This document shows, one piece after another, positions 12,396-51,135 of a stretch of DNA of 64,000 bases (its first letter is position 1; each line of letters starts with the position of its first letter). Source of the stretch: Dermanyssus gallinae (Eukaryota; Arthropoda; Arachnida; Mesostigmata; Dermanyssidae); NCBI GenBank assembly GCA_003439945.1, contig QVRM01005606.1, forward strand, positions 1-64,000. Direction: 5' to 3'. The notes beneath the pieces are model-generated. The model was not told the DNA's origin. It did not search any database and was given only the letters and a program-made list of their open reading frames with translations. The translations under genes were made by a program, and so were the position numbers.

Positions 12396-12866
12396 CTCCA
12401 ACTCTACCACTTTGCGCCCCCGTAGAGTACGTTCAACCGTCTGATAACTTTTCGAAGCGCAGCTGGTCATCTGTGGTAAAGAATGGTACGAAGGTGAACA
12501 ACGACACAATAAAGACTCGAGAAGTTGGACAGTCAAAGTCGAAACCTGTGGAAATAAGCGAAAAAGCGTTGCCTTCAATGGACATAGCTGCAGATCTTGT
12601 ACAAGGTTTACTAGACAAGGTTGTCCCCTGTATCATCAAAGCGGTTCAAACAGCGGTAACCAGTGTATTTGAAAAGTTGTTTCCCTCTCTGCTCTGTAGC
12701 CGCAGGAGAGATGGGTGGTGACTTGAGCAAAGCCACTGGAGCTACTTCCCTTGAAAAAACCTTGCAACACTCTATTGAAGCCTCCTTGCGCGACGCACTT
12801 TGCACGCTATCATGTAACCAAGGTGTAACGACGACCAAGCGCGACAGGCCTACTGAAGGCTCGTGA
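12396..12866 (+). pseudogene. ORF1 C-terminal piece of the 12360-15813 element
   Basis: It aligns with residues from about 380 to the end of the ORF1 at 49452-51038: the RSWSSVVK-type segment, an amphipathic region (IMDKITPCIVEAVQAAITSA there, LLDKVVPCIIKAVQTAVTSV here) and the HSIEASLRDAL helix. The frame changes at least twice, so no intact product is possible. The zinc knuckles were lost by 5' truncation. Confidence 0.65.
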
Positions 12867-12944
12867 CCGGCTTGCTCAGCAGTAACAAACGCACCAGTAC
12901 AAAAACAACCGCAACATACTCAAGACAAGAGATCGCAACTTAAA

Positions 12945-15718
12945 TTCTTTCAATGGAACTGTGAAGGCATTAAATCAAGTTACCCACTTCTTCCTTTAGC
13001 TAAGCAGTATGACGTGTTGGTTCTTACTGAGACATGGGCCACCAAACCTACAGTCGTTCCAAGTTGGTGTATAGCGGAATGCCTGGGTGTACAAACAGAG
13101 GGACCGGGCAGAACAAGTGGTGGAGTTGCAGTGTTGTTTAACAGCAAGCTCGCTGGCGCAAAAACATGCTACAAAGAGGATAACTGCGTAGGCCTAACAG
13201 GAACCGCCATTAACGTCATTGCAATATATTCAAGTCCTTCAGAAGCAATTTCAACACTGCTGGAGAAATTAGTACTATGTCTTGACATGGTGGACTTACA
13301 CAAAGTGACTGTAGTATGCGGTGATCTCAACTGTCGGCTTGACAAACCAAGATGTATAAGAACGGTATCACTACTCAACGCCTTGGCATCTCGCAGTATG
13401 TGGGTTATATCTACAGCTGAAGATTCGACATTCGTCGCGCCTCACGGACAATCTACGATTGACATTTTCGCCACAAATGCTAACCCATGTAATGTCAAGT
13501 ACAGGGGGGTGCAGGAGAAGACTCTGGCGTTCGGTGCAAGGTGGCACCTACCCGTCGCAATGGAAATATCAATTGAACCTCATTCTACAGATCACAAGCG
13601 GCTTTGTCTAAGTCGCAATCTGAATCTCAGCCTTTTGACGGTTACCTCGCGAAACATAGTCCCAGTGCCAACCGTGATCAACGTGGAATCCTATGCCACC
13701 AGCATTCGAAGTGCCATTACTGCTAGCGCTCGGCTAAAGCAACAAACGGAAAGCAAACGAACAAACAGAAAGCACGCTTCATGGTACAATCAGGAGTGCG
13801 CTTCTTGCAAACACTATATGATTCAAGCATACATTTTAGCAAAAATCCGCCCGGAGATGACTTATTTTTATACTAGATTAAATCGTGACTATAAAAGAGT
13901 TGTAAAAAACGCCATTAAAGAATATGAAGAACGAAAACAATACAAGCTGCTCCTAGAAGCGCAACAACGACTTCATAAGTGGCTGCAGACAGACAGGCGC
14001 GTTACTGCGTGTCCTATCCCACATGATATACTAAATGCTCATTTCCGGCAAATGTTTGCCAGTGCCATTACCGTTCCGAGCTGCGCTCCTGTGATAATGT
14101 CAGTGTGGGACAAGCGCGTCACTGACGCCCGTCAAGCCCTGTCGCGGCCTTTTAGCAATTCTGAAGTTATCGACTCAAAAATGAAAGCACCGTCTGGGAA
14201 GGCCCCGGGGCTCGATTTGGTCACAAATGAACATCTCAAGCAAGCGATTCACCTTGCGCCTTGTTTTACCAGACTTTTTAATGAGGTGATGAAAACGGTC
14301 CAACTACCCTCGGAATGGAAAACCAGTCTTCTTAGCATTATCCCTAAAGGAAAAGGAGATCCGCTAGCACCGTCGTCTTACCGAGGTATCGCAAAGAAGA
14401 GCGCAATCTACAAACTTCTGTCGGCTATCCTAGCCCGTAGATTAGAACATTTTCTTGAGATTAACAGAAAGCTGCCGGAGCAACAACATGGCTTCAGAAG
14501 GGGCCGGTCAACAATGACAGCATGTGCTGTACTTCTAAATTCGATACAACGGGCACTTCGAACTAAGGGGGCTTATCTATTTGCTGTATTTGTAGATTTT
14601 AAAGCGGCCTTTGATACGGCCGCACGAACAATTATACTTGACAAGCTGGCTTTTTGCGGGATCTCATTGAATATATTGGAGCTCATTAAAGGTTACAGGA
14701 AGGACAAGTTATTATAGATGACGGAGGCGCTAAACACATGGCGATCTTACAGACCACTGGTGTTGCCCAAGGTGATAATCTTAGCCCCCTGCTGTTTTCG
14801 GTGCTGGTGAGTGACCTTCCTGAAGAGATACGGAGTCGGCACTCGCAGGTAGACGTCCTTATGTATGCAGACGACTTGGTGCTATATTCTCGCAGTCGAT
14901 TCCATTTGCAACAATCCCTTGTGACCTTGCAGCATTACGTTCATCGAAACCAGTTGGAAATAAATTTAGATAAAACAAAGGCAATGAAGTTTAGACGCGG
15001 AGGGAAATTGGCTGGAATCGACGAACTACGGTTAGGTTCAAAATCTATAGAATTTGTCTCGCATTTCTCATACCTAGGGATTATGTTCTCGTCTCGAGGT
15101 ACGAACTTCTCGAGGCACATTGATGAACGAATTCGGAAAGGACTACAGTCCTTTCATAGCATCCGAGACCCTCATAAACTATCAATGGACGTTGCCGTTC
15201 ATCTCTTTAACCTGAAGATTGCGCCTACTGCTTCTTACGGTATACAGGTGATATGGCCGCATCTGACGAAGTTAAACTTTAAGGCGCTTGACCAAATCAA
15301 GGCCGCTTTTCTAAAAAAGGCGCTAAGAGTCCACCGCACTAGTCTCAACAGATTAGTCTATTTACTGGCGTCGACTCCGCTATTTGTTGAGAATTTACAA
15401 AAAATCCACGTGTTACCGAAAACGGCAGCTTTCAACGAGTACATGTCTGAATGGGAGAATAAGATGGCAGACATTGACCCGCTCTTTTATGAAACCCAGG
15501 CAATGACGTGTACTTCATGGAAGCGCTGCAACTATGAAAATAGACACCTAATTGCACGATTTGCTGTACATGGCTTCCACATGAAGATCTGTATTCGAGA
15601 GAAGTTCCATGAAATTTCCTCGTTATGCTTGTGCAAACTTTGCGGGAGACAGTGTGACTTATATCACCTTCAACGATGCGATAGAACAGTTCCGTTGACT
15701 CGACTTTTAGAACCGTGA
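12945..15718 (+). pseudogene. ORF2 endonuclease-reverse transcriptase, one frameshift (knuckle family)
   Basis: The APE-type endonuclease begins at FFQWNCEGIKS (about 12945). It keeps LVLTETWA, GDLNCRLDKP and STIDIFATN, which carry metal-binding and catalytic positions of this fold. The RT follows: AKKSAIYKLLSAILARRL, the motif A aspartate in FVDFKAAFD, then a small net -1 indel near 14695-14715. In the shifted frame it continues with GVAQGDNLSP (motif B), MYADDLVLYSRSRF (motif C, two catalytic Asp) and the MKFRRGGK segment. The C-terminus has a cysteine/histidine zinc motif (CLCKLCGRQCDLYHLQRC). Unlike the copy at 51136-53884, the LTETW segment is intact, so the indel is the only obvious lesion. 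There is no clear AUG before the endonuclease. Confidence 0.88.
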
Positions 15719-20285: not shown

Positions 20286-20444
20286 CTCTACCAACGGACG
20301 GCGATCCAACCGAAGCGACAATGGACGACGACGAAACAGCACACGGAACGCGACGAAGAGAATCAACAGCAGTCCACAGACCTAGAGCCCTCGACAACAA
20401 CCATGACCGCAGTACCGACTACAACCACATCCACGATGACGCTT

Positions 20445-20590
20445 CCCGACCACGGCCACCGAAGCCGACGACGCTCCTCGACCACGGCCACCAAAGCCGA
20501 CGACGCTCCTCGACCACGGCCACCAAAGCCGACGACGCTCACCGACCACGGCTACCGAAGCCGACGACGCTCCCCGACCACGATACCGTC
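20445..20590 (+). repeat. ~32-bp tandem repeat (Arg/Pro/Thr-rich if translated)
   Basis: A 'gccaccgaagccgacgacgc' unit with 'tcctcgaccacg' linker recurs about four times with few changes. Open frames through it (20267-20653) merely translate the repeat and I do not call a gene. Confidence 0.7.
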
Positions 20591-29075: not shown

Positions 29076-30109
29076 ATATATTGTCAACATTTAGGAGCGA
29101 CTAGTGCAAACAATTCTGTATGAAAAAAAAATGATTCACTTCTTCCAATGAATCAAACAGTAACGTCGTTATGAGCAAAAGCTATAGCAGAGCCACGGCT
29201 TAGCACCCAGTCCAAGAACTGAGCCTTAATGGGTACCGATATTAACCTTCCACGAGGACTCCATTCGACCATCTTGTATCACCGTCCTAGGCTCTAAGAA
29301 TAGGACATAACCCAGGCAACAGCCGGCGCGGAGTAACCCAGCTGGACGAGCCTCTGGAACAGAAAGACAACTGAAAGTTGCTGCTACAAGGCAACTGAAA
29401 GTTAGCGCATCAAGACTGCGAAACAAAACTTAAGTACCTCGACCGAATCAGATAAATAGGCTAACACAAAGTCAGTCGACTTAGCCCTACGAAAACAGAA
29501 CTGGCTAGACGAAAGGAAATAAATCGAAGTATCGATTTAGTCTGAGCAACACATGCTTCTCAATGACCTTTGAGATATGATCAATGTCAAGGCCTATAAT
29601 TAGCGGTGCGGTTACGTTCACCTTTCTTCTTTAATAGATAGTAAAAGAAATAGGATAAAAATAAGTATAGAAATAAAACAACGCCATATTTTTCAGCCAT
29701 ACTGGAAAGCTGCCAGACCCAAATGAACGATTTAAAATGGTAGTCAGAAGTCCTGCAATTGGATGGAACTCTTAGATTTTGCAGACGCATCAATGACACC
29801 TCGACTCCAATTTGCCGGATTTCAAGAACCTCGAAAGCAGAGACAGCAGAGAGCGAAAGGCATTAACATTTTTCTATACCTTATTGTGTAAGGTTACCAT
29901 ATTCTTATCTTCGGCAGAACTGACGGTTTAGCTCATCTACAATTTCACCCAAATAAATGTACTAGTCAAAAAAACAGCTATAATAAATAAAAAAGATGTC
30001 AGTAAATGATAAGAAAGAAATGGTAATAGTAGCGGAAGCATGTGAGGCATTGAGGTGAGGCACATAGAACCAATTATGAAAAGGTATCTATTTTTTTGTC
30101 ACGGAACAA
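29076..30109. other. No gene seen
   Basis: A 1-kb stretch without recognisable coding sequence or repeats, up to the 3' edge of the minus-strand PHD-family fragment at 30110. Confidence 0.4.
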
Positions 30110-30247
30110 ACTCACAAATTTCGTTTATTCACTAATTAAGTGTCGATAATACCTAAGTACAAAGAATTGTCTCGGCGTCAAGAGCTCACAAATGCAGTTA
30201 CAAGAATTGTATAGATTATAGAATATAAACATATACAATATACAAAG
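30110..30247 (-). mobile_element. PHD-family retrotransposon 3' UTR, outer layer of the nest (left part)
   Basis: On the minus strand this is the same 3' UTR as at 39388-39512: 'gtcgataatacctaagtacaaa', 'gagctcacaaatgcagttacaa' and 'catatacaatatacaaag' (plus-strand spelling) are shared. It stops at 30247 and its continuation, 'ttatgatgacatt...gagacccaat', is found at 37847. It is thus the left half of a copy split by the R2-like element. Confidence 0.82.
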
Positions 30248-30248: not shown

Positions 30249-30395
30249 CCGAGCCACTCGGACAACCTCCCGCAGACGGACCATTTATCCAGCCTCGGGT
30301 CGGATACAGGGAACCTAAGCCCAGCTCCTCACTACAACAGGGTTACTTGCACGCATTGCCAAAGGAACTTTACAAGAAGAGGAATCAAACGGCAC
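30249..30395 (+). CDS. R2-like element, N-terminal segment with first half of a C2H2 zinc finger
   Basis: The frame SPSHSDNLPQTDHLSS...SPAPHYNRVTCTHCQRNF runs without a stop from 30249 to the insertion point and ends in RRGIKRH. The C-x2-C and the first His of a C2H2 finger are here. The frame resumes exactly at 35003 with MTAAH, supplying the second His (C-x2-C-x11-H-x4-H). N-terminal fingers of this kind bind the DNA target in R2, R4 and NeSL-type elements. Confidence 0.8.
30382..30395. repeat. Target site duplication of the PHD-family element, left copy
   Basis: GAATCAAACGGCAC, 14 bp, repeated exactly at 34989-35002. Removing one copy plus the insert restores the R2-like reading frame. 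Confidence 0.9.
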
Positions 30396-30550
30396 GAACG
30401 GGATTCGAACGTTCGAACGTGGCTGGTCGCACATTGCCAAGCTCCTCGAAATTGTCGTAGTTCACAGTGTTTTGGTATGTTTATTGGCAGTAATCTGTGC
30501 ACAGTGAATCCGATCATATCCCGATAATCTCGGGAAATGGTCAATGTGTC

Positions 30551-32128
30551 ATGTCGAGTAGCCAAAGCGGTGTATTGGTAACTAGTGGAGACCTGCCAGT
30601 GACGATCCCGTACACTCCAGCGCCGAACAGACCGGTTCCGTCAAATAACAGCGCTAAAGGACGGAAGCGGCCACATACGTCAACTGACGAGGAAGAAACT
30701 GCGCAACCAGCTGTCCATAGAGTGAAAGTTGGTGCATTACAACTGAGTGACACCCAACAGCTGACAGACGGCAATACGCCGCGGACACAACTGGCCAAGA
30801 TGGAATATACTACTATGACAGCCAACTCATGTGCTAGGTGTACGAATCAATTGGGTGGAATGATACTCTCATGCGGATTATGTCGCCGCGCCTTCCACCC
30901 CGCTTGTAGGCGGAGTGATGAGCTCGAGCCAACTGAGCAACCAAGCACAATGTGGTACTGCCGTGTATGCTCAGATCTGGGTAGTAGGAGCACCACCACA
31001 ACGGGGAGAGAAATTCCTGGACTAGACGGTGACCTTCGCAGCGCCCTGTGGTTTCTCTTCAGTCGTGTCCGAACATTGGAGCAGGACCTTGTTGCTTACA
31101 AGGCACAGCACACTGGTGCTGGTACAACAAGACGAGGAGGAGCAACAGCAGCAAATGCTGAGGGCCAGATGGAGACAGACTGTCAAATATCACAAAGTGT
31201 GCCAATTATTGACAAGCTGCAGCGTATGCAGCAGACCAAAACTGTCCTGGTGATTGGTGACAAGTCGCTCAAGGTGGTCAAGGGAAAACTCCTTGCTCAA
31301 TTTCCCAAGAAGACCGCATTGGTGGTGCGCACCTCTGCTAAAGAAGACACCGCATCTATAGTGAAAGAAGCGGAGACCTTCTTGCAAGATCGTACTGCTC
31401 CGACGAGTGTTATTCTACACTGTGGGTATGGTGATTGTGTTGAATTCCGGAAGGATGAGTTTTTGTCCCAAATCGCCATGTTCTCGACGAAATTGCGGGA
31501 GCAGAATCCAGACTCACGTCTGACTGTGGTGAGCGTTCCTCAGTTTACTCAGTCATGCAAGGAAGCAAATGACACATTAGAGGCACGCAAGGAAGAGTTG
31601 AAGATAGAGGTGATCCCATTGCAGTATACACATCGCCTGATGGTTCACCGCAACGGCTACTCATACAGCGGAGTTCCTGGTGTAGCCGATTCCTTGGTGA
31701 GGGCTGTTGCCAGACGGGCAGCCAATTTTTTAGGGGTCAAACTAGTACCAATGAAACAGAGCATCAAGGACGATGGCAAAGGTGGTCTCAAGTCGGGTTT
31801 CAACCAGAAGGGAGTGCTCAGCCGGACGCCGGCACCGAAGACCACATCGACGTACCACGGAGGGAGGATCGTTCGGGCTACAGACACACCCAGGAGGAAC
31901 GTCCACGAGCAGACTATCCATCGCCGGGAAGCCACACATGGCCGTCAGACCTTGTTCTACCGTCAGCGTGTGCCACATCGCCCGCAGCGAGGGAACAGCA
32001 AGTCTCGAATGGATCCCGACATGAAGCAGAACACCCAAGTACCGGGCAAACCGAAGCTCTACGACATGGTGGCGAGGCTGCTGGCTCAAGTCGACCAACA
32101 GGGATACAACCAACACAAGAGCTTCTAA
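30551..32128 (+). CDS. PHD-family ORF1: PHD finger + SGNH/esterase-like protein
   Basis: 525 residues from the ATG at 30551; the frame is open further upstream but without ATG. Residues ~1-80 are Ser/Thr/Pro-rich. Residues ~96-145 form a PHD-type zinc finger: CARC, CGLC, HPAC and WYCRVC supply the Cys4-His-Cys3 ligands. A segment with helical character (ALWFLFSRVRTLEQDLVAYK) follows. Residues ~240-392 resemble the SGNH/GDSL esterase domain of CR1-type ORF1 proteins: VLVIGDKSLKVVKGKL at the nucleophile position, VILHCGYGDCVEF, VVSVPQF and HRNGYSYSG near the C-terminal catalytic position. The canonical GDS is GDKS, so activity is doubtful. The last ~130 residues are basic and disordered-looking. 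The heptamer T TTT TTA at codons 391-393 may shift a fraction of ribosomes into the ORF2 frame. Confidence 0.88.
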   Translation: MSSSQSGVLVTSGDLPVTIPYTPAPNRPVPSNNSAKGRKRPHTSTDEEETAQPAVHRVKVGALQLSDTQQLTDGNTPRTQLAKMEYTTMTANSCARCTNQLGGMILSCGLCRRAFHPACRRSDELEPTEQPSTMWYCRVCSDLGSRSTTTTGREIPGLDGDLRSALWFLFSRVRTLEQDLVAYKAQHTGAGTTRRGGATAANAEGQMETDCQISQSVPIIDKLQRMQQTKTVLVIGDKSLKVVKGKLLAQFPKKTALVVRTSAKEDTASIVKEAETFLQDRTAPTSVILHCGYGDCVEFRKDEFLSQIAMFSTKLREQNPDSRLTVVSVPQFTQSCKEANDTLEARKEELKIEVIPLQYTHRLMVHRNGYSYSGVPGVADSLVRAVARRAANFLGVKLVPMKQSIKDDGKGGLKSGFNQKGVLSRTPAPKTTSTYHGGRIVRATDTPRRNVHEQTIHRREATHGRQTLFYRQRVPHRPQRGNSKSRMDPDMKQNTQVPGKPKLYDMVARLLAQVDQQGYNQHKSF

Positions 32129-34911
32129 GGGTAGTCCAATGGAATTGTGAGAATCCTGACACGTCACTGAAACTTCTCCCACATTCAACACTGGATGGAG
32201 TAGACCTGTTGGTGTTGACCGAGACATGGTCTTCGAGTCAACTGTCTCTAAATAACTATTATGCCGTTAACTGTGTCGCTACTAGGGTTAGCAACATCGG
32301 TCGTCCGAGCGGAGGAGTGTCTGTATTTTACAACCACCGACTGGGCGACATGAAGACTTTAATAGCAGAGGATGACTGCGTTGTCATTGAGGGCAGCCGT
32401 ATCAACGTCATAGCACTATACGTGAGACCAGCCCCAGTAGAGGGCACCGGTGAGTTAGTCGAGAAGCTCACGACATGTATACAGCGGTTAGACTGGTACC
32501 GGCCCACCATTATTGCTGGAGACCTCAATGCGCGACTGGACAAACCAACTGACAACAGAACAATCGCATTAATTGATATATTAGCAGATCTAGGATTTTG
32601 GATTGCTACTGATCCCACCGTGGCGACATTTGAAGGAGCTATGGGTAGCTCTGTAATCGATATATTTGCAACCAACCTGGTGCAATCTGCTGTTCACTAC
32701 CTAGGGCGGGATCATCAACTTATTGGAGGAGCCACTCTGACAGCGCATGTACCCGTCGGGCTTGACGTCAGTGTTGATGTCCAGATAGCAAGACAAAAGA
32801 GTCGGGTTGCTCTGTCAAAATATCTTGACAGTCAACGCCTTTCGACAATTATAAATACAGTATTCCCGTGTCCTGAACGTCCACTGATTGAGGAGTATAA
32901 TGAGCTACTCACAGGGCTCCTTCTGTCCTGTGTGCCGCCACAGCATGCAAGACGAGGAACGCCATGGTGGACACCACAATGCTCCAGTGCGAAAGCTATT
33001 CAGTTCCAAGCAAGAGACCTCGCACGTATGCGACCAGAAATGTGCTCGCTTTACGCAGCATCTAAAGCGTTATATAGACGAACGCTCAAAGAGGCCAAAC
33101 TCCAATACGAAATACGGAAGGAGGACAAACTACTATCGAAGGCTCATGAACAACCGCACGTATGGCTCAAGACTACAAAGCAACTACGAGCACCATGCCC
33201 AGTAGACCGTGGAACCCTACGAGCACACTTCCAAAACATCCTGGGGGACAAGGACACAATTCCGCGAGAGCCGCCAACCTACACAAGCGTCTGGTCTGAA
33301 GAAGATACCCAGTGGAGGGAATACCTGGGGCGAGAATTTGATATTCAAGAGGTGACGGAGGCAATCCATAGCCTAAGGAAAAATAAGTCGCCTGGGCCGG
33401 ACAATATACGGAATGAACACATTCAGGAGGCCATGGTGCTTGCACCATGTTGGACCACGCTGTTCAACGAATGCATGCGTAGAGGAAAGATCCCATCAAG
33501 TTGGCGACAGTGCCTTCTGACTCTCATCTCCAAAGGCAAGGGCACACCCACTGATCCTGCCTCATGGAGAGGTATAGCAAAGAAAAGCTGCATTTACAAG
33601 TTACTGGCCAGTTTGTTGGTACGGAGACTGACACCTTACATTGCCCACAAAGACGCACTGCCAGACGAGCAGCATGGTTTCCGGCCACATAGATCAACAC
33701 TATCAGCTTGTACAACACTCCTCAAGGATATCGACAGCACCCTCTCACGAAAAGGTCAATTTTTGTACAGTGTGTTCGTTGATTTCCGAGCAGCCTTTGA
33801 CTCGGGTTCGAGGTGCATAGTTCTTAACAAATTCGCTGAACTTGGTGTTCCAGCACCAATCGTAGGACTTCTCCAGGATGTCCTCCAAACAAATCAAGTC
33901 GTCATAGATGATGGAGTCACAGAGCATCCGCCACTGGTGCAAACTAATGGGTTCACACAAGGAGACAATCTGAGCCCGCTGATGTTTACACTTCTAATAG
34001 CGGACCTGCCACCCAAAATCAAGAAACGACACCCCACGGTCGATATAATTATGTACGCGGACGACCTGGTGATTTACAGCCGGAGTAGATTTCACCTTCA
34101 ACAAGCATTGGCAACCCTCTCTTCATATATTGCCGACGTTGGACTGGAAATCAACGCCCAAAAGACTGAGGCGATGAAATTTAGACGTGGCGGTAGAATA
34201 GCAGAAGGAGACACTTTAAGGCTAAACGGTCATGTTTTGAGCTATGTTAATAGATTCACATACTTAGGCGTGACACTGACGCCCAGTGGCAAAACGTTTG
34301 GTGTACATATAGAACAGCGAGTAGCAAAGGCACTGGTGGCCGCAACAATGATAGCACAGCCGCAAAAACTGTCACTCAGCACGGCACTGGCTTTGTTTAA
34401 TATGAAAATAGCACCAACTGCATCTTATGGAATAGAACTGCTCTGGGAGAAACTGAGCACAGCACACCTCGCGTTGTTAGATAGTACTAAACCTGCATTT
34501 CTAAAAAGGGTCTTGGGCCTGCACTGCTCAACGCGAAATCGTTTGGTCTATCTTCTTACAGGTACTCCGCTGTTTGTCGAACAGTTAAAGTCGCAGTTTA
34601 AGTTCCCAGAGACGCCGGCCTATCGTGAATTTATTAGGCTGTATGATGAAAAGATGGCAGACGTTGATCCCGATTTTTATAACACAAGAGCAATGACAAA
34701 CACTGAGTGGAAGGGGGTGTGCCGAAATACTCGTCATACGGTTGTAAGATATGCGGTTCACGGGTTCCACCATGCAATATGTAGAACAGAAGGATATCAT
34801 GACCTAAGTGATCTTTGTATATGCAAATATTGTGGCTTATCATGTTCAAGATACCACGCTGGTCAATGTACGAAAATGACATCGATAACAAGTCTGAATA
34901 TGATCTCATAG
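31573..34911 (+). CDS. PHD-family ORF2: APE-type endonuclease + reverse transcriptase (-1 frame of ORF1)
   Basis: The frame is open from 31573 to the stop at 34911 and overlaps ORF1 by 556 nt. There is no ATG before about 32350, past the first endonuclease motifs. The conserved endonuclease starts at VVQWNCENPD (about 32131), then LVLTETWSSSQ, GDLNARLDKP, SSVIDIFATN and AHVPVG. RT: AKKSCIYKLLASLLVRRL, EQHGFRPHRSTLSAC, FVDFRAAFDS (about 33778, motif A), TQGDNLSPLMFTLL (motif B), IIMYADDLVIYSRSRFH (about 34050, motif C), MKFRRGG and FTYLGVTLTP. The C-terminus has CICKYCGLSCSRYHAGQC, a putative nucleic-acid-binding zinc motif. Together these nick target DNA and copy the element RNA onto it. No lesion is seen. 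Missing AUG plus the slippery site upstream suggests expression as an ORF1-ORF2 fusion. Confidence 0.88.
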   Translation, partial: HIRGTQGRVEDRGDPIAVYTSPDGSPQRLLIQRSSWCSRFLGEGCCQTGSQFFRGQTSTNETEHQGRWQRWSQVGFQPEGSAQPDAGTEDHIDVPRREDRSGYRHTQEERPRADYPSPGSHTWPSDLVLPSACATSPAAREQQVSNGSRHEAEHPSTGQTEALRHGGEAAGSSRPTGIQPTQELLRVVQWNCENPDTSLKLLPHSTLDGVDLLVLTETWSSSQLSLNNYYAVNCVATRVSNIGRPSGGVSVFYNHRLGDMKTLIAEDDCVVIEGSRINVIALYVRPAPVEGTGELVEKLTTCIQRLDWYRPTIIAGDLNARLDKPTDNRTIALIDILADLGFWIATDPTVATFEGAMGSSVIDIFATNLVQSAVHYLGRDHQLIGGATLTAHVPVGLDVSVDVQIARQKSRVALSKYLDSQRLSTIINTVFPCPERPLIEEYNELLTGLLLSCVPPQHARRGTPWWTPQCSSAKAIQFQARDLARMRPEMCSLYAASKALYRRTLKEAKLQYEIRKEDKLLSKAHEQPHVWLKTTKQLRAPCPVDRGTLRAHFQNILGDKDTIPREPPTYTSVWSEEDTQWREYLGREFDIQEVTEAIHSLRKNKSPGPDNIRNEHIQEAMVLAPCWTTLFNECMRRGKIPSSWRQCLLTLISKGKGTPTDPASWRGIAKKSCIYKLLASLLVRRLTPYIAHKDALPDEQHGFRPHRSTLSACTTLLKDIDSTLSRKGQFLYSVFVDFRAAFDSGSRCIVLNKFAELGVPAPIVGLLQDVLQTNQVVIDDGVTEHPPLVQTNGFTQGDNLSPLMFTLLIADLPPKIKKRHPTVDIIMYADDLVIYSRSRFHLQQALATLSSYIADVGLEINAQKTEAMKFRRGGRIAEGDTLRLNGHVLSYVNRFTYLGVTLTPSGKTFGVHIEQRVAKALVAATMIAQPQKLSLSTALALFNMKIAPTASYGIELLWEKLSTAHLALLDSTKPAFLKRVLGLHCSTRNRLVYLLTGTPLFVEQLKSQFKFPETPAYREFIRLYDEKMADVDPDFYNTRAMTNTEWKGVCRNTRHTVVRYAVHGFHHAICRTEGYHDLSDLCICKYCGLSCSRYHAGQCTKMTSITSLNMIS
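31726..31732 (+). promoter_or_regulatory. Putative -1 ribosomal frameshift heptamer (T TTT TTA)
   Basis: In the ORF1 frame the codons are AAT TTT TTA GGG, so the heptamer T TTT TTA is in the X XXY YYZ phase required for simultaneous slippage, the same word used at retroviral gag-pol junctions. ORF2 lies in the -1 frame, which is open here. The word lies exactly at the end of the esterase-like domain. It is also present in the diverged copy at 41894-41900 (minus). I see no obvious strong stem-loop within the next 60 nt by eye. Confidence 0.6.
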
Positions 34912-34988
34912 GATGGATTGTGGATATAATGTTCTTATAATATATATTTGTAATGTGCAATACCTAACCAAGGTGACAATAAACGATT

Positions 34989-35002
34989 GAATCAAACGGC
35001 AC
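34989..35002. repeat. Target site duplication of the PHD-family element, right copy
   Basis: Exact repeat of 30382-30395, immediately before the resumed R2-like frame. Confidence 0.9.
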
Positions 35003-37750
35003 ATGACGGCAGCACACTCGAACATTGAACACCCATTTTTACCCCCCGTCAGCAATCCGGTCGACAACACTGATGGTACCCACCTGCGCGAAAAACTCGC
35101 CGAGTACACAAAGACATACAAACGGCTCGACACCATCCCTAAAAGTGCCCGTCCTGCAGTTGCGGTAGCGCTGGCCGACACACTTTCACTCGTACATCAA
35201 AACAATGACGCGCATAGCTGGGCCAACCTACTGGTTTTCGCGCATACAGTTCTCAGAGCTCCATCACAAAAACAGAACAATCTTAGTTGGACTACATACC
35301 TCAGAGACAGAATCGAGGAACATAGATCAGGTAGTGGGCCTTCACCCGAATTGGTCCCAAGGAAGCACTGGAACAAGCGACCTAACGAGGACGAAGCTGC
35401 CGCTAGACGAGCAACCAGGCTACTAGGCGAAGGCGACATTGGAGGCGCTGCGAGAGCTCTGCTTTCTGTGGGAAGTCCTGTTTGCGCAGCCGAAGCGTTC
35501 GTGGAAATGACTTCCAAACACCCTAGTGAACCGGCCGACCTTGACTTGCCACCAAGACTATCCCTTGCTGAGCCGCTAGTCATCAGTTCAGAAGAGATTC
35601 GCGAGGCCGTACGAACCTTTCCGGCAGGGTCTACCGCCGGTATGGACGGCCTGCGGCCGCGCCACCTCAGAGACCTCATTGCCACGACCAACACAAATAT
35701 CGCCAGTCGTCTACTGCGTGACTTAGCAAAAGTGATTGACATTATCAGAAATGGCACAGTGCCTGAGGCCATCCGCCCTATTATTTTTGGTGGACGCCTC
35801 ATCGCAATTAAAAAGCCGAGTGGGTCATTTCGTCCAATCGTCATTTCCTCAGTCTTTCGGAGGATTGCGGCAAAAATCACTGTCAAGCTAGGAACAAATA
35901 TCGTGTGCGAAAAGCTTGGGGCCCACCAGCTTGGCTTCAATACGCCTAGTGGCATCGAAGCAGTGGTCCACACAACAAGAGCTTTTATGTCTAGCGCACC
36001 CAACAATTTCGTCGCCGCCAAACTCGATTTTAAGAATGCTTTTAACCAGGTCCGTCGCGACCACATACTAAAAACTGTACAAACGGATTGGCCAGAGGCA
36101 GCCCCCTTAGTTGACCAAACCTACAGATCCAGTTCAGAGCTCTCATTCGGTGAAAGAACAATTTTCTCGCGCAGCGGCGTGCAGCAGGGCGACCCCCTTG
36201 GTCCGCCGCTATTCTGCCTAGCAATCAAAGAACTGGTCAATTCTATCCAGTCCCCCTTAAATCTCTGGTACCTAGACGATGGCACCATTGGGGGAGAAGC
36301 ATCTGTGGTACAGGCAGATATCAAGAGAGTTCTTGACTTCGGTCAGAAGAGTGGTCTTGAGCTCAACCCCCAGAAGTGCGAAATTATTTACAAAGGCCAC
36401 CCGAACATACCCGCCTTTGAGGCACTTCTTCCGGGGTGCAAACAAGTCGAGGCAGCAGATATGACGCTCTTAGGGTCCCCTGTGGGGTCGGCCGCCACTC
36501 ACCCAGAACTCGCAGGTAAGATAAAGAGTCTTTGCTCTCGCCTAAACCGGCTAAACCTGCTTAACCCCCATAGCGCATATCACCTATTAAAATCATCGTT
36601 GGGCTCATCGAGAATTATCCACTTCCTCCGCAGCACGGACGTCGGAGCAAACCAGGACCTGCTGAGGGAGTTAGACAATAGCCTTAGGACCAGCCTTAGC
36701 GACCTCCTCAATCTAAACTTGGCCGACAACAACTGGGCTCAGGCCACCCTTCCTCTTAGACTCGGAGGTTTGGGAATCCGCTCTGCAGCAGATCTGGCAG
36801 CCAGCTGTCACGTTGCTTCATTATACGCCTCAGAAGCTACAGTCCAGCACATCAGTCCGGCCATAGCCCTGCAGGCTTTCCAGGATGCCAAAAAAGCTGC
36901 TGATACAAGATTCGAGAACCTCGCAGGCCTACTCCCAGAGGCAAACAAACACCTGCAGAGGTCCTATGACGATCTCATAGTATCCAAGAAATATCAGCGT
37001 TTACTGTCCGATGCACTGTCCACGGCAGACAAAGCCCGACTACAGGCGGTTGTCCAAAAAGGGGCTAGCAAATGGCTCCAAGCCATCCCTTCCTCAAACC
37101 TTGGCACTTTACTTGATCACGAAAGTTTTCGTCTGTGCATCGGCTTGAGGTTGGGAACAAGACTAACGGAGGAACACCGGTGTCCGTGCGGAGCACAAGT
37201 GGACATTTGGGGAACCCACGGGCTATCCTGCAACAGAAGCGAAGGACGTCAAAGCCGTCACAGCGATATTAACGAGATTACCGCCCGGGCCTTAAGGTCA
37301 GCTCTACTGCCATGTATTCGAGAGCCAACCGGCCTCCTGAGAAGCGACGGAAAGAGGCCTGACGGTCTCACCCTTATCCCTTTTGAAAGAGGAAAGGCGC
37401 TTATTTGGGATGCTACAGTCACCGACACGCTCGCCCCCTCGAACATGGAGGCCAGCGCATCAGCCGCTGGCTCCGCAGCACGCAAGGCTGAACGTCTAAA
37501 GACCAACAAATACGCCCAGCTCACCGACGAGTTCATTTTTGTGCCACTAGTATTGGAGACACTAGGGGGACCTGGCCCTGAGGCATGGTCACTTTTACAG
37601 AAGATTGGTAAACGAATTGAACTCACGACGGGGGACAAAAGAGCTTTCGACTTTCTACTCCAGCGGCTATCTCTGGCGGTTCAGCGCGGCAATGCGGCAG
37701 CAATTATGGGTACAATGAGGGGCTGCCTCGAGGATAAGCTCGATTGGTAG
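35003..37750 (+). CDS. R2-like element: reverse transcriptase with C-terminal restriction-like endonuclease
   Basis: 915 residues without a stop. The apparent start Met is the middle of a zinc finger whose first half is at 30249-30395, so the true N-terminus is upstream. RT (residues ~200-480): STAGMDGLRPRHLRDL, RPIVISSVFRRIAAKI, KLDFKNAFNQVRRDHIL (motif A), SGVQQGDPLGPPLFCL (motif B), LWYLDDGT (motif C with Leu instead of Ala), GLELNPQKCEII and LLGSPVG. The C-terminal third has a Cys/His motif (CPCG, HGLSC, residues ~726-745), RHSDIN, then REPTGL, KRPDGLTLIPFERGK and WDATVTD (residues ~784-806). That PD...D layout after a CCHC-like motif matches the restriction-like endonuclease of R2 elements. 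The tail (GPGPEAW, TGDKRAFDFLLQRLS, QRGNAAAIMGTM) is conserved in the fragments elsewhere in this window. No lesion other than the nested insertion. Confidence 0.88.
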   Translation: MTAAHSNIEHPFLPPVSNPVDNTDGTHLREKLAEYTKTYKRLDTIPKSARPAVAVALADTLSLVHQNNDAHSWANLLVFAHTVLRAPSQKQNNLSWTTYLRDRIEEHRSGSGPSPELVPRKHWNKRPNEDEAAARRATRLLGEGDIGGAARALLSVGSPVCAAEAFVEMTSKHPSEPADLDLPPRLSLAEPLVISSEEIREAVRTFPAGSTAGMDGLRPRHLRDLIATTNTNIASRLLRDLAKVIDIIRNGTVPEAIRPIIFGGRLIAIKKPSGSFRPIVISSVFRRIAAKITVKLGTNIVCEKLGAHQLGFNTPSGIEAVVHTTRAFMSSAPNNFVAAKLDFKNAFNQVRRDHILKTVQTDWPEAAPLVDQTYRSSSELSFGERTIFSRSGVQQGDPLGPPLFCLAIKELVNSIQSPLNLWYLDDGTIGGEASVVQADIKRVLDFGQKSGLELNPQKCEIIYKGHPNIPAFEALLPGCKQVEAADMTLLGSPVGSAATHPELAGKIKSLCSRLNRLNLLNPHSAYHLLKSSLGSSRIIHFLRSTDVGANQDLLRELDNSLRTSLSDLLNLNLADNNWAQATLPLRLGGLGIRSAADLAASCHVASLYASEATVQHISPAIALQAFQDAKKAADTRFENLAGLLPEANKHLQRSYDDLIVSKKYQRLLSDALSTADKARLQAVVQKGASKWLQAIPSSNLGTLLDHESFRLCIGLRLGTRLTEEHRCPCGAQVDIWGTHGLSCNRSEGRQSRHSDINEITARALRSALLPCIREPTGLLRSDGKRPDGLTLIPFERGKALIWDATVTDTLAPSNMEASASAAGSAARKAERLKTNKYAQLTDEFIFVPLVLETLGGPGPEAWSLLQKIGKRIELTTGDKRAFDFLLQRLSLAVQRGNAAAIMGTMRGCLEDKLDW

Positions 37751-37836: not shown

Positions 37837-37847
37837 ATATACAAAGT
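37837..37847. repeat. Target site duplication of the R2-like element, right copy
   Basis: Repeat of 30238-30248 at the resumption of the outer PHD-family copy. Confidence 0.75.
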
Positions 37848-38060
37848 TATGATGACATTGAACGAGCCAGGTGATTTAGAGACCCAATTTTACTACAAAC
37901 AAGACCGTGATATCTAGAACATTCGGTATGACAATATTTATATCTGCAGTCAACATCGGTGAAAGGTGCAGAAAAGCGAAGAGCAAGTGCACACAGTGCG
38001 GTGGCGAACGTTACAACTTCAGGATACTGCAGATAATACATATGTGAGCTCATGCAAAAT
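37837..38060 (-). pseudogene. PHD-family retrotransposon 3' part, outer layer of the nest (right part)
   Basis: The minus strand carries the C-terminal zinc motif of ORF2 (CRYKYCHTECSRYHGLVC) and a 3' region 'atttagagacccaat...ttatgatgac' also found at 39512-39575. It joins 30247 when the R2-like element is removed. Upstream of the zinc motif the frame is disturbed and similarity fades by about 38060. Confidence 0.75.
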
Positions 38061-39387
38061 TAACAGACAAACACGCTGTCGAGTGCTACTTAACCAGGAG
38101 AGCTGTCCAATTGCTGGGAAAAGTCAGCTGACTGTATTAGTGGCCTTCGAATCCGTACTTTTGCATGCAAAGCGTATATTGTATACACTGTAGGATATAT
38201 AGCGTATACACGATAAAAGGTAACGTATCGAAACTGAGCAATGACGAAAAACACAACATTAAGTTCCGGCATATTTTCGGCCCAATACAATTTAAGAGTT
38301 TAAGCATACCAAATCTTCCAAAGGGAACGCTGCCGTTGATGTCGGACGTGCCAGTGATACATCATATTACAGATACGCGCATCCGTGGAAGTAGCAAAGT
38401 GCTAGAGAGAATAAAACAGGTGATAAGGCCGCGGTTAGTACATGCTTTAAGTGGTTCATTTACCGAAAGGAAACGACAGATGCATAAACGTTCACGCTAT
38501 TGTGTGAACTTTACTCGATGTAGCCCTTTAGCGTAACAAGTAGCAGAACGAAAAAGAAGAACACTGCTAGCAGCCATAAATATAGAGAGAGAAGCATAAC
38601 TAGAATAAGGGTACGAAAAGCCAGTCTACCCTACAAGAGTAAGAACATTAGCGAATAATTCACCGATTGTTATGAGAAAGAAACAAGCAATAACTTAAAA
38701 TCAGTGTGGTAAAGGGTGCGAGAGTCGAGAGAAACAACACATAATCGCTCAATGACATGCTACATCTTGGACACCAGGGACCAAATCTGATATCAGATAT
38801 AGTAGATGCACTGCTAAACACATGGACGATATCGCCCTAGGCTACAATTTTGCGAACGGAAGTATCGAACCTGTGTAGAAACCTTGCGCAGAGTTTTCAA
38901 TGCGGAGAGATTCCTTGCAAAAAAAGAGCCACCAATTCGCGCAAGAGAGCAGTTCTCCTGCAACGTGACGACAATAACATACTAACAGTTAACCAAACAG
39001 CATTTAAGATACTAGGAGTGCGGTCAGAAGTGACAACAGACACAATAGGGGATTCCACGAACATGACCAAAGCGAAAACACATCTTAGTCGAAACAAGCA
39101 GACAAAGTGCACACATAAGAAAAATCACAAGTAAACAATATGAGGCCGTACGTTGAACTAGGCCTAGTTGTATGCCAGCATACGTATTTCTGTAAAATGT
39201 TTGATAACTTAAGAACAGCAATGGCAGAAGAGACATAAGTAGAGATGCCATTGTCCATAGGTATTCCTGTGGGGTAGTCGAAAAATTCAGTGTTTTTTGC
39301 CACGCTAGCATGAAATAAGCTACACTTATTTAAGGGGTGGACAAGGATATTCAATAATCTATACCTAGTGTTTGTAAAGAGTGAACT
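38061..39387. other. No gene seen
   Basis: Only short open frames (38165-38536 and 38850-39134, plus) without recognisable domains or splice borders. A/T-rich 'gtatac' palindromic words occur around 38180-38210. I see nothing supportable. Confidence 0.4.
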
Positions 39388-39855
39388 TCACAAATTCCAT
39401 TTATTCACATATTTAGTGTCGATAATACCTAAGTACAAATAACTGGCTCGGCGTCAGGAGCTCACAAATGCAGTTACAATATTTGTATAAAAAAAACATA
39501 TACAATATACAAAGTTATGATGACATTCTACGGGCCAACTGATTTAGAGACCCAATCGGGGTCGTGGAAGCCTTCTGCACTGCATAAGTGGTGGTGGTAG
39601 CCGTGAACCGAAAAACGTGCTATCACATGGCGATTCGGTCGGTCGGGCCCTTTTCACACGTCGTCAGTCATTGCGAGTGTTGATATCAAGATCTATGTCG
39701 GCCAGTTTGTTCTTCTGAAGCTGTATGAACGCCTTGTATGCCTCTGTCTCCTGCAGCCCATACATCTTCCGTATGTCTTCTATGAATAGCGAGGTCCCTG
39801 TCAGTACACAAATCAGACGGTTGCAAGAGGAGGAGTGCAGGCCCAGCACTCGCTT

Positions 39856-41528: not shown

Positions 41529-42720
41529 CTAGTTGTAAAACTTTCTTCTCCGGGTGTTTGCTTTGGACCCTCGACCCTTCTGTAGTGCTGTTTCGATGAA
41601 GTCGCTCAGCATGGGTTTGTCGGGTCTGGAAGACGATCGATGCACGTTTGCTCGCAACGATTGCTGCTTCGTACGTTCGTCCATACGTCCCCTCACAGGT
41701 CCACTGCGGTGGTGCCGTTGGTTGCACAGAAGGGAGATCAGACGGTCCAGTATCGCTGGGTTCTGGTAGCTCGGAGTAGGTACTGGCATCTTCTCCTTTT
41801 GCTTCGTCGCGCGCGCACTTCCTTTCGAGATGTTCGTCGACGAGCCGCCCATATTTGATTCAGTCGGGATTTTGTTCAACGGGATTGTGCGGCTAAAAAA
41901 GTAGCGGCCCGGCGGGCTATAGCTTTGGCACAGGCGTCCCGCGCATACGTGAAACCACTATACGAATAAATCCGTTGTGTACAATGGTCCGATGCGTCCG
42001 AATCATATTAATCACGCCAAAGTCTACCGTCGAGGCTTCTTGGAGTAAGCAGTCGTTAGCATTTTTGCACTTCTTCTGGAATTGAGGAACCGTCATCCCC
42101 GACAAGGAGCAATTCGGTCGCTGCGACTTCAAGGCTTTGGCGAATTCAGACACCTTGCCGAGGAAGACGTCCTTGTTGAATTCCATGCATCCGTCGTATC
42201 CACGGATGGCAATGACGTGAGTTGGTTGTGGGTATTTCTCCGAGAAACCCTGTGCTTGTGTCAATGCCGTAGCTGCATCAGACTTCGAACACACACGGAT
42301 TACTAACGGAGTCTTCTACGGTAATTGTTCGAGTCTTTTACTCTTCAGCTGACGGACGGTTATATCTTCAACAATCAACACCGATTTTGGGGGTACCTTG
42401 GGGCTACGCTGGCTTCCCTGCTTACCAATCTCAGTTGGTTAAGTAACACTATCAGACCCATCATGCGATGCGCTTGTAGGTCTGTTCGCTAAGTTAGCCA
42501 CACGTTCTACAAGAGCCCTCAACCGTAGCGCTAAATGGGTAGCAAAGTTCGCAAAATCACTTGTGAGGGGTTCCTTGTTGAGCACTGCCAAAAACTCCTC
42601 GGTGGTCATTTTCGCAGCCGGTAATGAGCAAAGACGACAAAGCCACAATGCACCGCGTTCTCCGCTGGGCTCCTTTTCGTCACCGAACTTGCAAGCTATG
42701 TGAAATTCACGTTTACATCC
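41529..42720 (-). pseudogene. ORF1 of the diverged PHD-family copy (PHD end, esterase-like domain, tail)
   Basis: MWLCRLCSLPAA (about 42648) matches the end of the PHD finger. The esterase-like part reads THVIAIRGYDGCMEFNKDVF, SGMTVPQFQKKCKNANDC and HRTIVHNGFIRIV. A frame change then gives ARRAATFLA, equivalent to ARRAANFLG at the slippery site of the intact copy. A tail ORF (41879-41529) ends just before the endonuclease, which again lies in the -1 frame relative to it. Confidence 0.7.
41894..41900 (-). promoter_or_regulatory. Conserved T TTT TTA heptamer in the diverged copy
   Basis: The minus strand codons are GCT ACT TTT TTA GCC, keeping T TTT TTA in the same phase although the preceding codon changed from AAT to ACT. 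It is a decayed homologue of the putative frameshift site at 31726-31732. Confidence 0.55.
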
Positions 42721-42780
42721 TCACCATCTAAGTAGCACACCACTCAAGCAGTCGCCACGTCTACTACAACCCATTTCGAC

Positions 42781-43432
42781 TTCATCGTATTCGATTTTTT
42801 TTATGTTTGTTGACATTATCCTTGTTTGTTGATGTTGTCAGAGTCAACGGAACAGTCGAAACCTCCCCGCTTCCGCGAACTCGAGCGGTTCACCGTGGAT
42901 CCGTAAACACACTACACGACGGAACAACAGCCGCTTCACTAAGTCCGCGCTGCCAGCTAGTGCCGGAGAAGACGATGGGAGGGAGTGTGGAGATGTGGTG
43001 GTGGGAGAGCACGTTCGCCTGCCAGCCGGCTTACTCAGAACCGATCCTCGGTTCGCTACAACGGACGCATAACACGCTCCGACACGGCACTCACTTTGTG
43101 CATTGGTTCAGGGCGAACCCGAGAGCGTGCACGGATCCAGCAATGCACACTGATGAACACTCAACTCAGGATGTTTTCTCGGGAGCTCAACTGTCGCGTC
43201 ACCGAGGCGGATTAGCGCGCGGGGCGATGATAAAGAGTGAACTTACTTTCACGAAATGGTATATTTCTATACACAGACTAGAGCTATTGGGAGTGACCCT
43301 CGCGGCCAGAATGTAAACCCCAATAGTTCCAGGAACCACTTACTTTTAAAACTACTATTACACTGGACACACAAAAATACACGCATACACACGGGGAGGG
43401 GATACAATTGACATTACAGACCTCGGGAAAAC
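42781..43432. other. No gene called
   Basis: Probably 5' UTR of the minus-strand PHD-family copy on the left and 5' sequence of the next element on the right. A 169-codon plus-strand open frame (42807-43316) has no recognisable domain. Confidence 0.35.
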
Positions 43433-49310: not shown

Positions 49311-49451
49311 CAGCTTCTATCCTCGGTACGTAATCATTATCGAACGCTATACTCAGCGTTATAATATCGAACATCATACTCAGCGCGGCCTGCGTCCGCC
49401 TGTAGTCAAACAATATCTTGTTTGTAAACAGGCGCGGCGCAGCAGCTGGTC

Positions 49452-51038: not shown

Positions 51039-51135
51039 GAGTAAAGGGCACTCGTGACCAAAGCTCGCACGTGCAGGTAGTGTCACGGCAAAAGGCATTT
51101 CAAGACCAAGCCAGAAACAGCAACAACAAATCACC

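What the first reader, a model, noticed from the sequence alone, without database searches (positions are those of the whole stretch)
31573..32128. Putative programmed -1 frameshift linking a PHD/esterase ORF1 to the endonuclease-RT ORF2
Seen: ORF2 lies in the -1 frame of ORF1 and is open for 556 nt inside ORF1 with no ATG until after the first endonuclease motifs. At 31726-31732, exactly at the end of the esterase-like domain, the ORF1 codons AAT TTT TTA form T TTT TTA in the slippage phase. A diverged copy on the other strand keeps the same heptamer in the same phase (41894-41900) though the codon before it changed, and its ORF2 is again -1 to the ORF1 tail. Known: U UUU UUA is a canonical -1 slippery word in retroviruses. 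Inference: a fraction of ribosomes make a fusion of PHD, esterase-like, endonuclease and RT domains, an unusual strategy for a two-ORF non-LTR retrotransposon.
Basis: partly seen in the sequence, partly recalled or inferred. Interest (0 to 1): 0.9.

Follow-up and report, generated by a model that had tools for sequence, protein, structure and literature searches.

The report
Jumping gene read by slipping ribosomes

Summary
Window ~30402-34988 is a full-length LINE with a 14-bp target-site duplication. ORF1 (PHD finger) ends at 32128; ORF2 (endonuclease-RT) is in the -1 frame with no ATG before 32350. The genome holds at least 28 copies (92-100% identical, some partial). In 22 of 23 covering copies a TGA closes the -1 frame at 31678-31680, so the 556-nt overlap is peculiar to the window copy; in the family the frame opens 45 nt upstream of T TTT TTA. 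Synonymous shuffles of ORF1 expect 7.6 stops in 31733-32125 and give none in about 1 of 8,000 trials (0.5% under a stricter shuffle). 20 of 22 well-covered copies have no in-frame ATG before 32350.

A sister family (ORF2 46% identical, CCHC-type ORF1 without similarity) has ORF1 and ORF2 in one frame separated by a TGA in 30 of 30 fetched loci, with no Met before the endonuclease motif: likely readthrough. Fusion by recoding is the most economical reading for both.

Against: no stimulatory RNA structure; young copies test the heptamer little; the one diverged copy is broken; the esterase label is unsupported. Closest precedent: Paramecium LINEs, predicted only.

The parts
30382..30395 (+). left copy of 14-bp target-site duplication GAATCAAACGGCAC
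   Evidence: exact match at 30382-30395 and 34989-35002, 0.03 expected by chance; the flanks joined without the insert give an open frame with a C2H2-like motif
30402..34988 (+). full-length two-ORF LINE (CR1/Jockey-type by domains); the six bases between the duplication and 30402 are not shared with the other full-length copies
   Evidence: full-length copies begin at element position 7-9, i.e. 30402-30404
30551..32128 (+). ORF1 from its first ATG, with PHD finger (residues 113-159 of the stop-to-stop frame, about 30830-30970) and stop TAA 32126-32128
31678..31680 (+). last -1-frame stop (TGA) in 22 of 23 covering copies; TGG in the window copy
31681..32128 (+). dual-frame overlap of the family: ORF1 tail and predicted -1-frame linker
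   Evidence: in 31733-32125 0 stops against 7.6 expected; 18 of 22 fully covered copies free of -1 stops in 31681-32128
31726..31732 (+). predicted -1 slippery heptamer T TTT TTA
   Evidence: 21 of 24 covering copies carry it uninterrupted
31795..31801 (+). only other in-phase XXXYYYZ in the overlap, GGGTTTC; weaker candidate
32104..32106 (+). ATA codon in the ORF2 frame, 11 codons before the QWN endonuclease motif; ATA in 28 of 28 copies
32131..34911 (+). ORF2 endonuclease and reverse transcriptase
   Evidence: Pfam RVT_1 8.3e-34; Exo_endo_phos_2 8e-6, 26.2 bits, just under its curated cut-off of 27.4
34989..35002 (+). right copy of target-site duplication
41885..42810 (-). diverged, broken ORF1 of a sister PHD-type element with TTTTTTA at 41894-41900
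   Evidence: tblastn 32.5% identity over 295 aa, then 50% over 28 aa across the site; DNA alignment
51055..51057 (+). in-frame TGA before ORF2 of the CCHC sister family (this window copy also has an indel in the A run just upstream)
   Evidence: TGA in 30 of 30 fetched loci

Best explanation
The element is a LINE whose ORF2 has no AUG ahead of its endonuclease motif, and its ORF2 is predicted to be translated as an ORF1-ORF2 fusion when ribosomes shift -1, likely at U UUU UUA (31726-31732). Most ribosomes would finish ORF1 at 32126-32128; a minority would slip one base back with tRNA-Phe and tRNA-Leu re-pairing, read a linker of about 130 residues in the -1 frame and continue into the endonuclease and RT. 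Shown: the frame relation, the missing AUG, the stop 45 nt upstream of the heptamer, the stop-free -1 frame downstream, and the heptamer in most covering copies. Inferred: that slippage happens, that it happens at this heptamer, its efficiency, and that the fusion is the working ORF2 protein. The sister CCHC-ORF1 family would reach the same end by UGA readthrough.
For: No in-frame ATG from 31681 to 32349 in 20 of 22 copies covering at least 660 of the 669 bases (exceptions L007, L019, at different places); two full copies fetched (L065, L066) show ORF2 frames of 1075 and 1076 aa with the first Met at residue 224, i.e. at 32350. The -1 frame has 23 stops between 30551 and 31572 in the window, a last TGA at 31678-31680 in 22 of 23 copies, then none to 32128 in 18 of 22 fully covered copies; chance 1.25e-4 for 31733-32125, or 0.00525 with the stricter shuffle. 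TTTTTTA uninterrupted in 21 of 24 covering copies and present in the diverged minus-strand copy, where the codon before it differs but still ends in T. The sister family, ORF2 46% identical over 918 aa and ORF1 without a match, has a TGA at the junction in 30 of 30 fetched loci, of 40 scored; two full copies read 542 codons, TGA, 945 codons in one frame, first Met 122 codons after the TGA. So two relatives with unrelated ORF1s both lack an ORF2 AUG ahead of the endonuclease and both would allow a fusion.
Against: No stem-loop (z from -0.04 to +1.29 for 60-120 nt) and no simple H-type pseudoknot downstream of the heptamer. Copies are 92-100% identical, so heptamer retention says little; many of them carry private indels and 4 of 22 have a -1 stop in the overlap. 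The diverged copy is one broken copy: its endonuclease frame has two stops between the heptamer and the stretch that is open, and its ORF1 changes frame there, so it shows only that the heptamer letters persist. Slippery words are common by chance. Substitutions shared by two or more copies in 31733-32125 do not favour either frame: 2 of 11 synonymous for ORF1, 4 of 11 for ORF2. One antisense frame is also open there, which shuffles give in 3.3% of trials. Some distant relatives (P0004, P0005, P0006, P0009; 45-49% identity) have a predicted Met 16 to 22 residues before the endonuclease motif, so an own start may be usual elsewhere; whether those are ATG cannot be seen (P0001, otherwise like the window, is shown with Met where the window has GTG at 32212). 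A sub-threshold match to an IRES family lies in the sense strand near 32013-32083 (17.8 bits against a cut-off of 40).
Confidence: 0.6

Rival explanations
1. ORF2 is translated by termination-reinitiation at a non-AUG codon near the ORF1 stop (for example AUA 32104), as in coupled LINE translation but without the AUG.
For: Termination-reinitiation is described for SART1 and proposed for L1 (passages of PMC5972666; PMC2881922). An ATA sits 11 codons before the endonuclease motif in 28 of 28 copies.
Against: It gives no reason for a -1 frame free of stops over about 420 nt upstream, nor for the in-frame TGA without a nearby AUG in the sister family. No UAAUG or AUGA stop-start pair lies at the ORF1 stop.
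Confidence: 0.2
2. -1 frameshifting is real but the site is not the T6 heptamer (for example GGGTTTC 31795 or another site in 31681-32128).
For: No RNA structure supports the heptamer; GGGTTTC is the only other in-phase word.
Against: T TTT TTA lies just inside the opened frame, is a canonical word (recalled) and its letters are kept in the diverged copy.
Confidence: 0.1
3. Non-ribosomal routes or internal entry: transcript slippage at T6, splicing, or an internal ribosome entry site giving ORF2.
For: The T run has indels in 2 of 24 covering copies (L011, L017). In both full PHD-family copies a weak, sub-threshold match to the BiP IRES family (17.8 bits, cut-off 40, E 0.13) lies in the sense strand about 45-115 nt before the ORF1 stop, near 32013-32083.
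Against: No copy gained a single T by insertion; L010 and L012 reach T7 by substitution. The IRES match is far below the curated score, and an entry site would still need a start codon, which is lacking before the endonuclease motif.
Confidence: 0.07
4. The overlap is accidental: a dead or parasitic family whose master lost the ORF2 start and which moves by proteins of other LINEs.
For: Some relatives elsewhere have a predicted Met just before the endonuclease; many copies carry private indels.
Against: At least 28 young copies; the two full copies fetched keep ORF1 and ORF2 open; the -1 frame is cleared of stops; the sister family lacks the AUG too.
Confidence: 0.1

Closest known systems
Paramecium germline LINEs, groups 1-3 (PMC5405496, passages read)
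   Same: ORF2 proposed to need +1 frameshifting or reinitiation (groups 1, 2) or readthrough of the ORF1 stop (group 3); two modes among related LINEs of one genome
   Different: ciliate; +1 rather than -1; no slippery heptamer or stop-clearance test in the passages read; prediction only there as well
CR1/Jockey-superfamily LINEs with PHD-type ORF1 (PMC4120745, passages read)
   Same: PHD in ORF1, endonuclease-RT ORF2
   Different: the passages read mention no frameshifting, and the words overlap and fusion do not occur in its text; some have a single PHD-bearing ORF; here two overlapping frames
SART1 UAAUG coupling and L1 ORF2 reinitiation (PMC5972666, PMC2881922, passages read)
   Same: ORF2 translation depends on ORF1 translation (predicted here)
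   Different: they have an ORF2 AUG at or after the ORF1 stop; this family has none ahead of the endonuclease motif
Retroviral and LTR-retrotransposon gag-pol -1 frameshifting (PMC5009743, passages read)
   Same: pol frame -1 to gag, canonical heptamer, fusion as minority product (predicted here)
   Different: no detectable stimulatory structure; a two-ORF LINE with endonuclease instead of an LTR element (LTRs and protease not searched for)

Membership tests
two-ORF APE-type LINE (CR1/Jockey superfamily) | APE-type endonuclease and RT in ORF2 | tested here: met
   RVT_1 8.3e-34, above cut-off; Exo_endo_phos_2 8e-6 but 26.2 bits against a cut-off of 27.4
two-ORF APE-type LINE (CR1/Jockey superfamily) | PHD in ORF1 (several subgroups) | tested here: met
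   PF00628 3.8e-6, 27.3 bits, cut-off 24
two-ORF APE-type LINE (CR1/Jockey superfamily) | esterase domain in ORF1 (type IV) | tested here: inconclusive
   no Pfam or PDB esterase hit by sequence; AF2 without alignment, pLDDT 39.6
two-ORF APE-type LINE (CR1/Jockey superfamily) | clade placement by RT phylogeny | not tested
   no reference LINE set at hand
programmed -1 ribosomal frameshifting | X XXY YYZ heptamer in slip phase inside a 0/-1 overlap | tested here: met
programmed -1 ribosomal frameshifting | stimulatory RNA structure shortly downstream | tested here: not met
   usual but not universal (recalled)
programmed -1 ribosomal frameshifting | -1 frame kept open as coding sequence | tested here: met
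   stop clearance; selection on the -1 protein itself not shown
programmed -1 ribosomal frameshifting | fusion product measured | not testable with these tools
   needs reporter, profiling or peptides
SART1-type stop-start reinitiation | AUG overlapping or near the ORF1 stop in the ORF2 frame | tested here: not met
UGA readthrough (sister CCHC family only) | stop between two in-frame ORFs, conserved in copies, no AUG before the downstream domain | tested here: met
   TGA in 30 of 30 fetched loci; first Met at +122 in 16, +46 in 11, +73 in 2, +30 in 1, the endonuclease motif being at +29 to +31; two full copies
UGA readthrough (sister CCHC family only) | readthrough product measured | not testable with these tools
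   needs reporter or peptides

The most novel reading that the evidence does not exclude
A lineage of LINEs in this genome gave up the ORF2 start codon and became gag-pol-like: ORF2 exists only as an ORF1-ORF2 fusion, and when the lineage swapped its ORF1 module (PHD type against CCHC type) the recoding signal was swapped with it, -1 slippage in one and UGA readthrough in the other.
Probability: 0.5. Interest if true: 0.85.

Novelty: new variant of a known kind. Interest (0 to 1): 0.68.

Why it matters
How LINEs translate ORF2 is a long-standing question, answered so far mainly by reinitiation (SART1, L1). A LINE family with no ORF2 AUG ahead of the endonuclease, a cleared -1 frame and a retroviral-type slippery word, beside a sister family with one conserved UGA, makes the alternative (a fusion by recoding) directly testable with short reporters. 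If true, fusion would couple ORF1 and ORF2 in one polypeptide and fix their ratio, as gag-pol does, and would show recoding changing together with the ORF1 module. My ten literature searches (open-licence full texts only) led to predicted +1 and readthrough cases in Paramecium LINEs and a frameshift needed for the HeT-A gag gene; in what I read of them I saw no -1 heptamer linking ORF1 and ORF2 of a LINE. Subscription papers and preprints are not covered, and most listed papers were seen as listings only.

Tried and rejected
Own ORF2 AUG lost only in this copy: rejected, ATA at 32104 in 28 of 28 copies. Non-AUG starts upstream in 31573-31680: rejected for the family, because a TGA at 31678 follows them in 22 of 23 copies. 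Downstream RNA structure: none found. Substitution test of dual coding: too few shared changes. Esterase fold: not confirmed. Homologues of ORF1, and of the ORF1-and-linker part of the sister fusion, in the protein collection: none at E 0.001 among about 8,000 scored candidates each, so no naturally fused relative was seen; among the 11 nearest ORF2 relatives the longest is 975 aa. Viral contigs: no relative of ORF2. SECIS element for the UGA of the sister family: none among the eight Rfam matches up to E 1 in four fetched copies, all eight below curated scores (six antisense in L063 and L064; two in the sense strand of L065 and L066, to an IRES family). Copies of the minus-strand PHD sister family, the best independent test of the heptamer, could not be obtained: no search for them was answered. 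The host species was not identified.

Full report
What was checked. ORF1 runs 30494-32128 (first ATG 30551) and ORF2 is open in the -1 frame from 31573 to 34911, with its first in-frame ATG at 32350, after the QWN motif that opens the endonuclease. T TTT TTA at 31726-31732 is in slip phase; the only other in-phase XXXYYYZ in the overlap is GGGTTTC at 31795.

What the element is. A 14-bp direct repeat (30382-30395 and 34989-35002; 0.03 expected) flanks it. The flanks joined without it read openly through a C2H2-like motif into a 919-aa frame (34991-37750) that looks by eye like the RT of an R2-type element (not scanned). So a PHD-ORF1 LINE sits inside another element. Pfam finds PHD in ORF1, RT in ORF2, and endonuclease models at E 8e-6 and 2e-4 just under their cut-offs. 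Other full-length copies begin at 30402-30404 of the window numbering.

The family. All 28 have ATA, not ATG, at 32104, 11 codons before the QWN motif. Of 22 copies covering at least 660 of the 669 bases 31681-32349, 20 have no in-frame ATG; L007 and L019 have one each, at different places. At 31680 the window has G and 22 of 23 covering copies have A, which closes the -1 frame with TGA. The family's -1 frame therefore opens at 31681, 45 nt before the heptamer, and is free of stops to 32128 in 18 of 22 fully covered copies (exceptions L015, L016, L019, L021). The heptamer is uninterrupted in 21 of 24 covering copies: L010 has T in place of the final A, L011 has two T inserted, L017 lacks one T; L012 keeps it but has a T before it. 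Many copies carry private indels. Two full copies were fetched (L065, L066): ORF1 frames of 545 and 544 aa, ORF2 frames of 1075 and 1076 aa, first Met at residue 224.

Chance. Resampling synonymous codons of ORF1 gives on average 7.6 stops in the -1 frame of 31733-32125 and none in 1.25e-4 of 40,000 trials (7.5e-5 for 31681-32125); permuting only the codons inside 31733-32125 gives none in 0.00525. The other open frame there, antisense and codon-aligned, is expected open in 3.3%. A slippery word of the right class is expected somewhere in 31681-32120 in 42% of shuffles, in the first 100 nt in 23%, and as TTTTTTA at this exact Asn-Phe-Leu in 3%. So the cleared frame, not the heptamer, carries the statistical weight.

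Diverged copy. The minus-strand ORF1 (42810-41885) aligns at 32.5% over 295 aa and 50% over 28 aa across the site. Its DNA reads ACTTTTTTAGC where the window has AATTTTTTAGG: the codon before differs but keeps its final T. Its endonuclease frame is open for about 111 codons before the LWN motif without a Met, but between that stretch and the heptamer the same frame has two stops, and the ORF1 frame also changes there. It is one broken copy, so it shows that the heptamer letters persist, not that the whole overlap is intact.

The sister family. Another LINE in the window (ORF1 49428-51038 with a zinc knuckle) showed no ATG before its endonuclease motif. Of 482 first-look candidates 40 were scored and 30 loci fetched; all 30 were examined. 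The first Met after the TGA lies at +122 in 16 loci, +46 in 11, +73 in 2 (L057, L058) and +30 in 1 (L054), the endonuclease motif being at +29 to +31. Upstream the same frame is open for 541-542 codons in 6 of 30 (L035, L036, L037, L046, L049, L060); many of the others have decayed further. Two full copies (L063, L064) read 542 codons, TGA, then 945 codons in the same frame. A third, more decayed element (ORF2 from 12867) has the same layout, TCG TGA CCG. The sister's ORF2 is 46% identical to the PHD family's over 918 aa, while the ORF1s gave no match at E 1. No SECIS was found and no structure after the TGA stands out (z -0.93 to +1.35).

Mechanism. The simplest common reading is that both lineages make ORF2 as an ORF1 extension: -1 slippage, likely at U UUU UUA, in the PHD family and UGA readthrough in the CCHC family. 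Steps shown: frames, stops, missing AUGs, heptamer, TGA conservation. Steps inferred: that slippage or readthrough occurs, where, how often, and that the fusion is the active protein. The lack of an RNA structure argues for low efficiency, which a LINE might tolerate, since ORF2 protein is needed in small amounts (recalled).

Results against. Copies are young, so conservation inside the family is weak evidence. Shared substitutions do not separate the frames (2 of 11 synonymous for ORF1, 4 of 11 for ORF2). Distant relatives P0004, P0005, P0006 and P0009 have a predicted Met 16 to 22 residues before the endonuclease motif and P0007 one 58 residues before it, so loss of the AUG may be a local trait; a shown Met need not be ATG, since P0001 has Met where the window has GTG (32212). 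A sub-threshold match to the BiP IRES family (17.8 bits, cut-off 40, E 0.13) lies in the sense strand of both full PHD-family copies, near 32013-32083 in window numbering; at that score chance is likely. The esterase label rests on no hit.

Literature. Passages read: PMC5405496 (Paramecium LINEs: +1 frameshift or reinitiation, or readthrough, predicted), PMC5009743 (recoding review; frameshift in HeT-A gag, LTR -1 cases), PMC5972666 and PMC2881922 (reinitiation), PMC4120745 (ORF1 types; its abstract places esterase ORF1s in two vertebrate groups only), PMC7175516 and PMC1925062 (nothing on this point). Other titles were seen in search listings only.

Noticed in passing
window 49428-53884; L033-L062, L063, L064: CCHC-ORF1 LINE family with ORF1 and ORF2 in one frame and a TGA between them in 30 of 30 fetched loci; predicted stop readthrough, perhaps as interesting as the finding given.
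   Followed up: yes
window about 12500-15718: A third, decayed LINE with the end of ORF1, a TGA and ORF2 in one frame (TCG TGA CCG) and no ATG before the endonuclease motif; its other copies were not sought.
   Followed up: partly
L018 / L029 (G000:C3653): A natural copy with a 2-nt deletion at 31741-31742 in which the first 397 residues of ORF1 and the ORF2 frame lie in one frame.
   Followed up: partly
L065 3228-3298 and L066 3163-3233, minus (sense) strand; about window 32013-32083: Sub-threshold Rfam match to the BiP IRES family just before the ORF1 stop (17.8 bits against 40); probably chance.
   Followed up: no
window about 30300-37750: The LINE is nested in the C2H2-like region of another element with a 919-aa frame that looks RT-like, R2-type by eye; not scanned.
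   Followed up: partly
window 30095-30213 and 39371-39489; 37837-37888 and 39505-39556: Direct repeats of 84-90% identity around the nested elements, perhaps UTRs of related copies.
   Followed up: no
window 20434-20582: Tandem array of a 32-nt unit, 4.7 copies.
   Followed up: no
P0004-P0006, P0009: Relatives from other sources with a predicted Met 16 to 22 residues before the endonuclease motif; whether these are ATG could not be seen.
   Followed up: no
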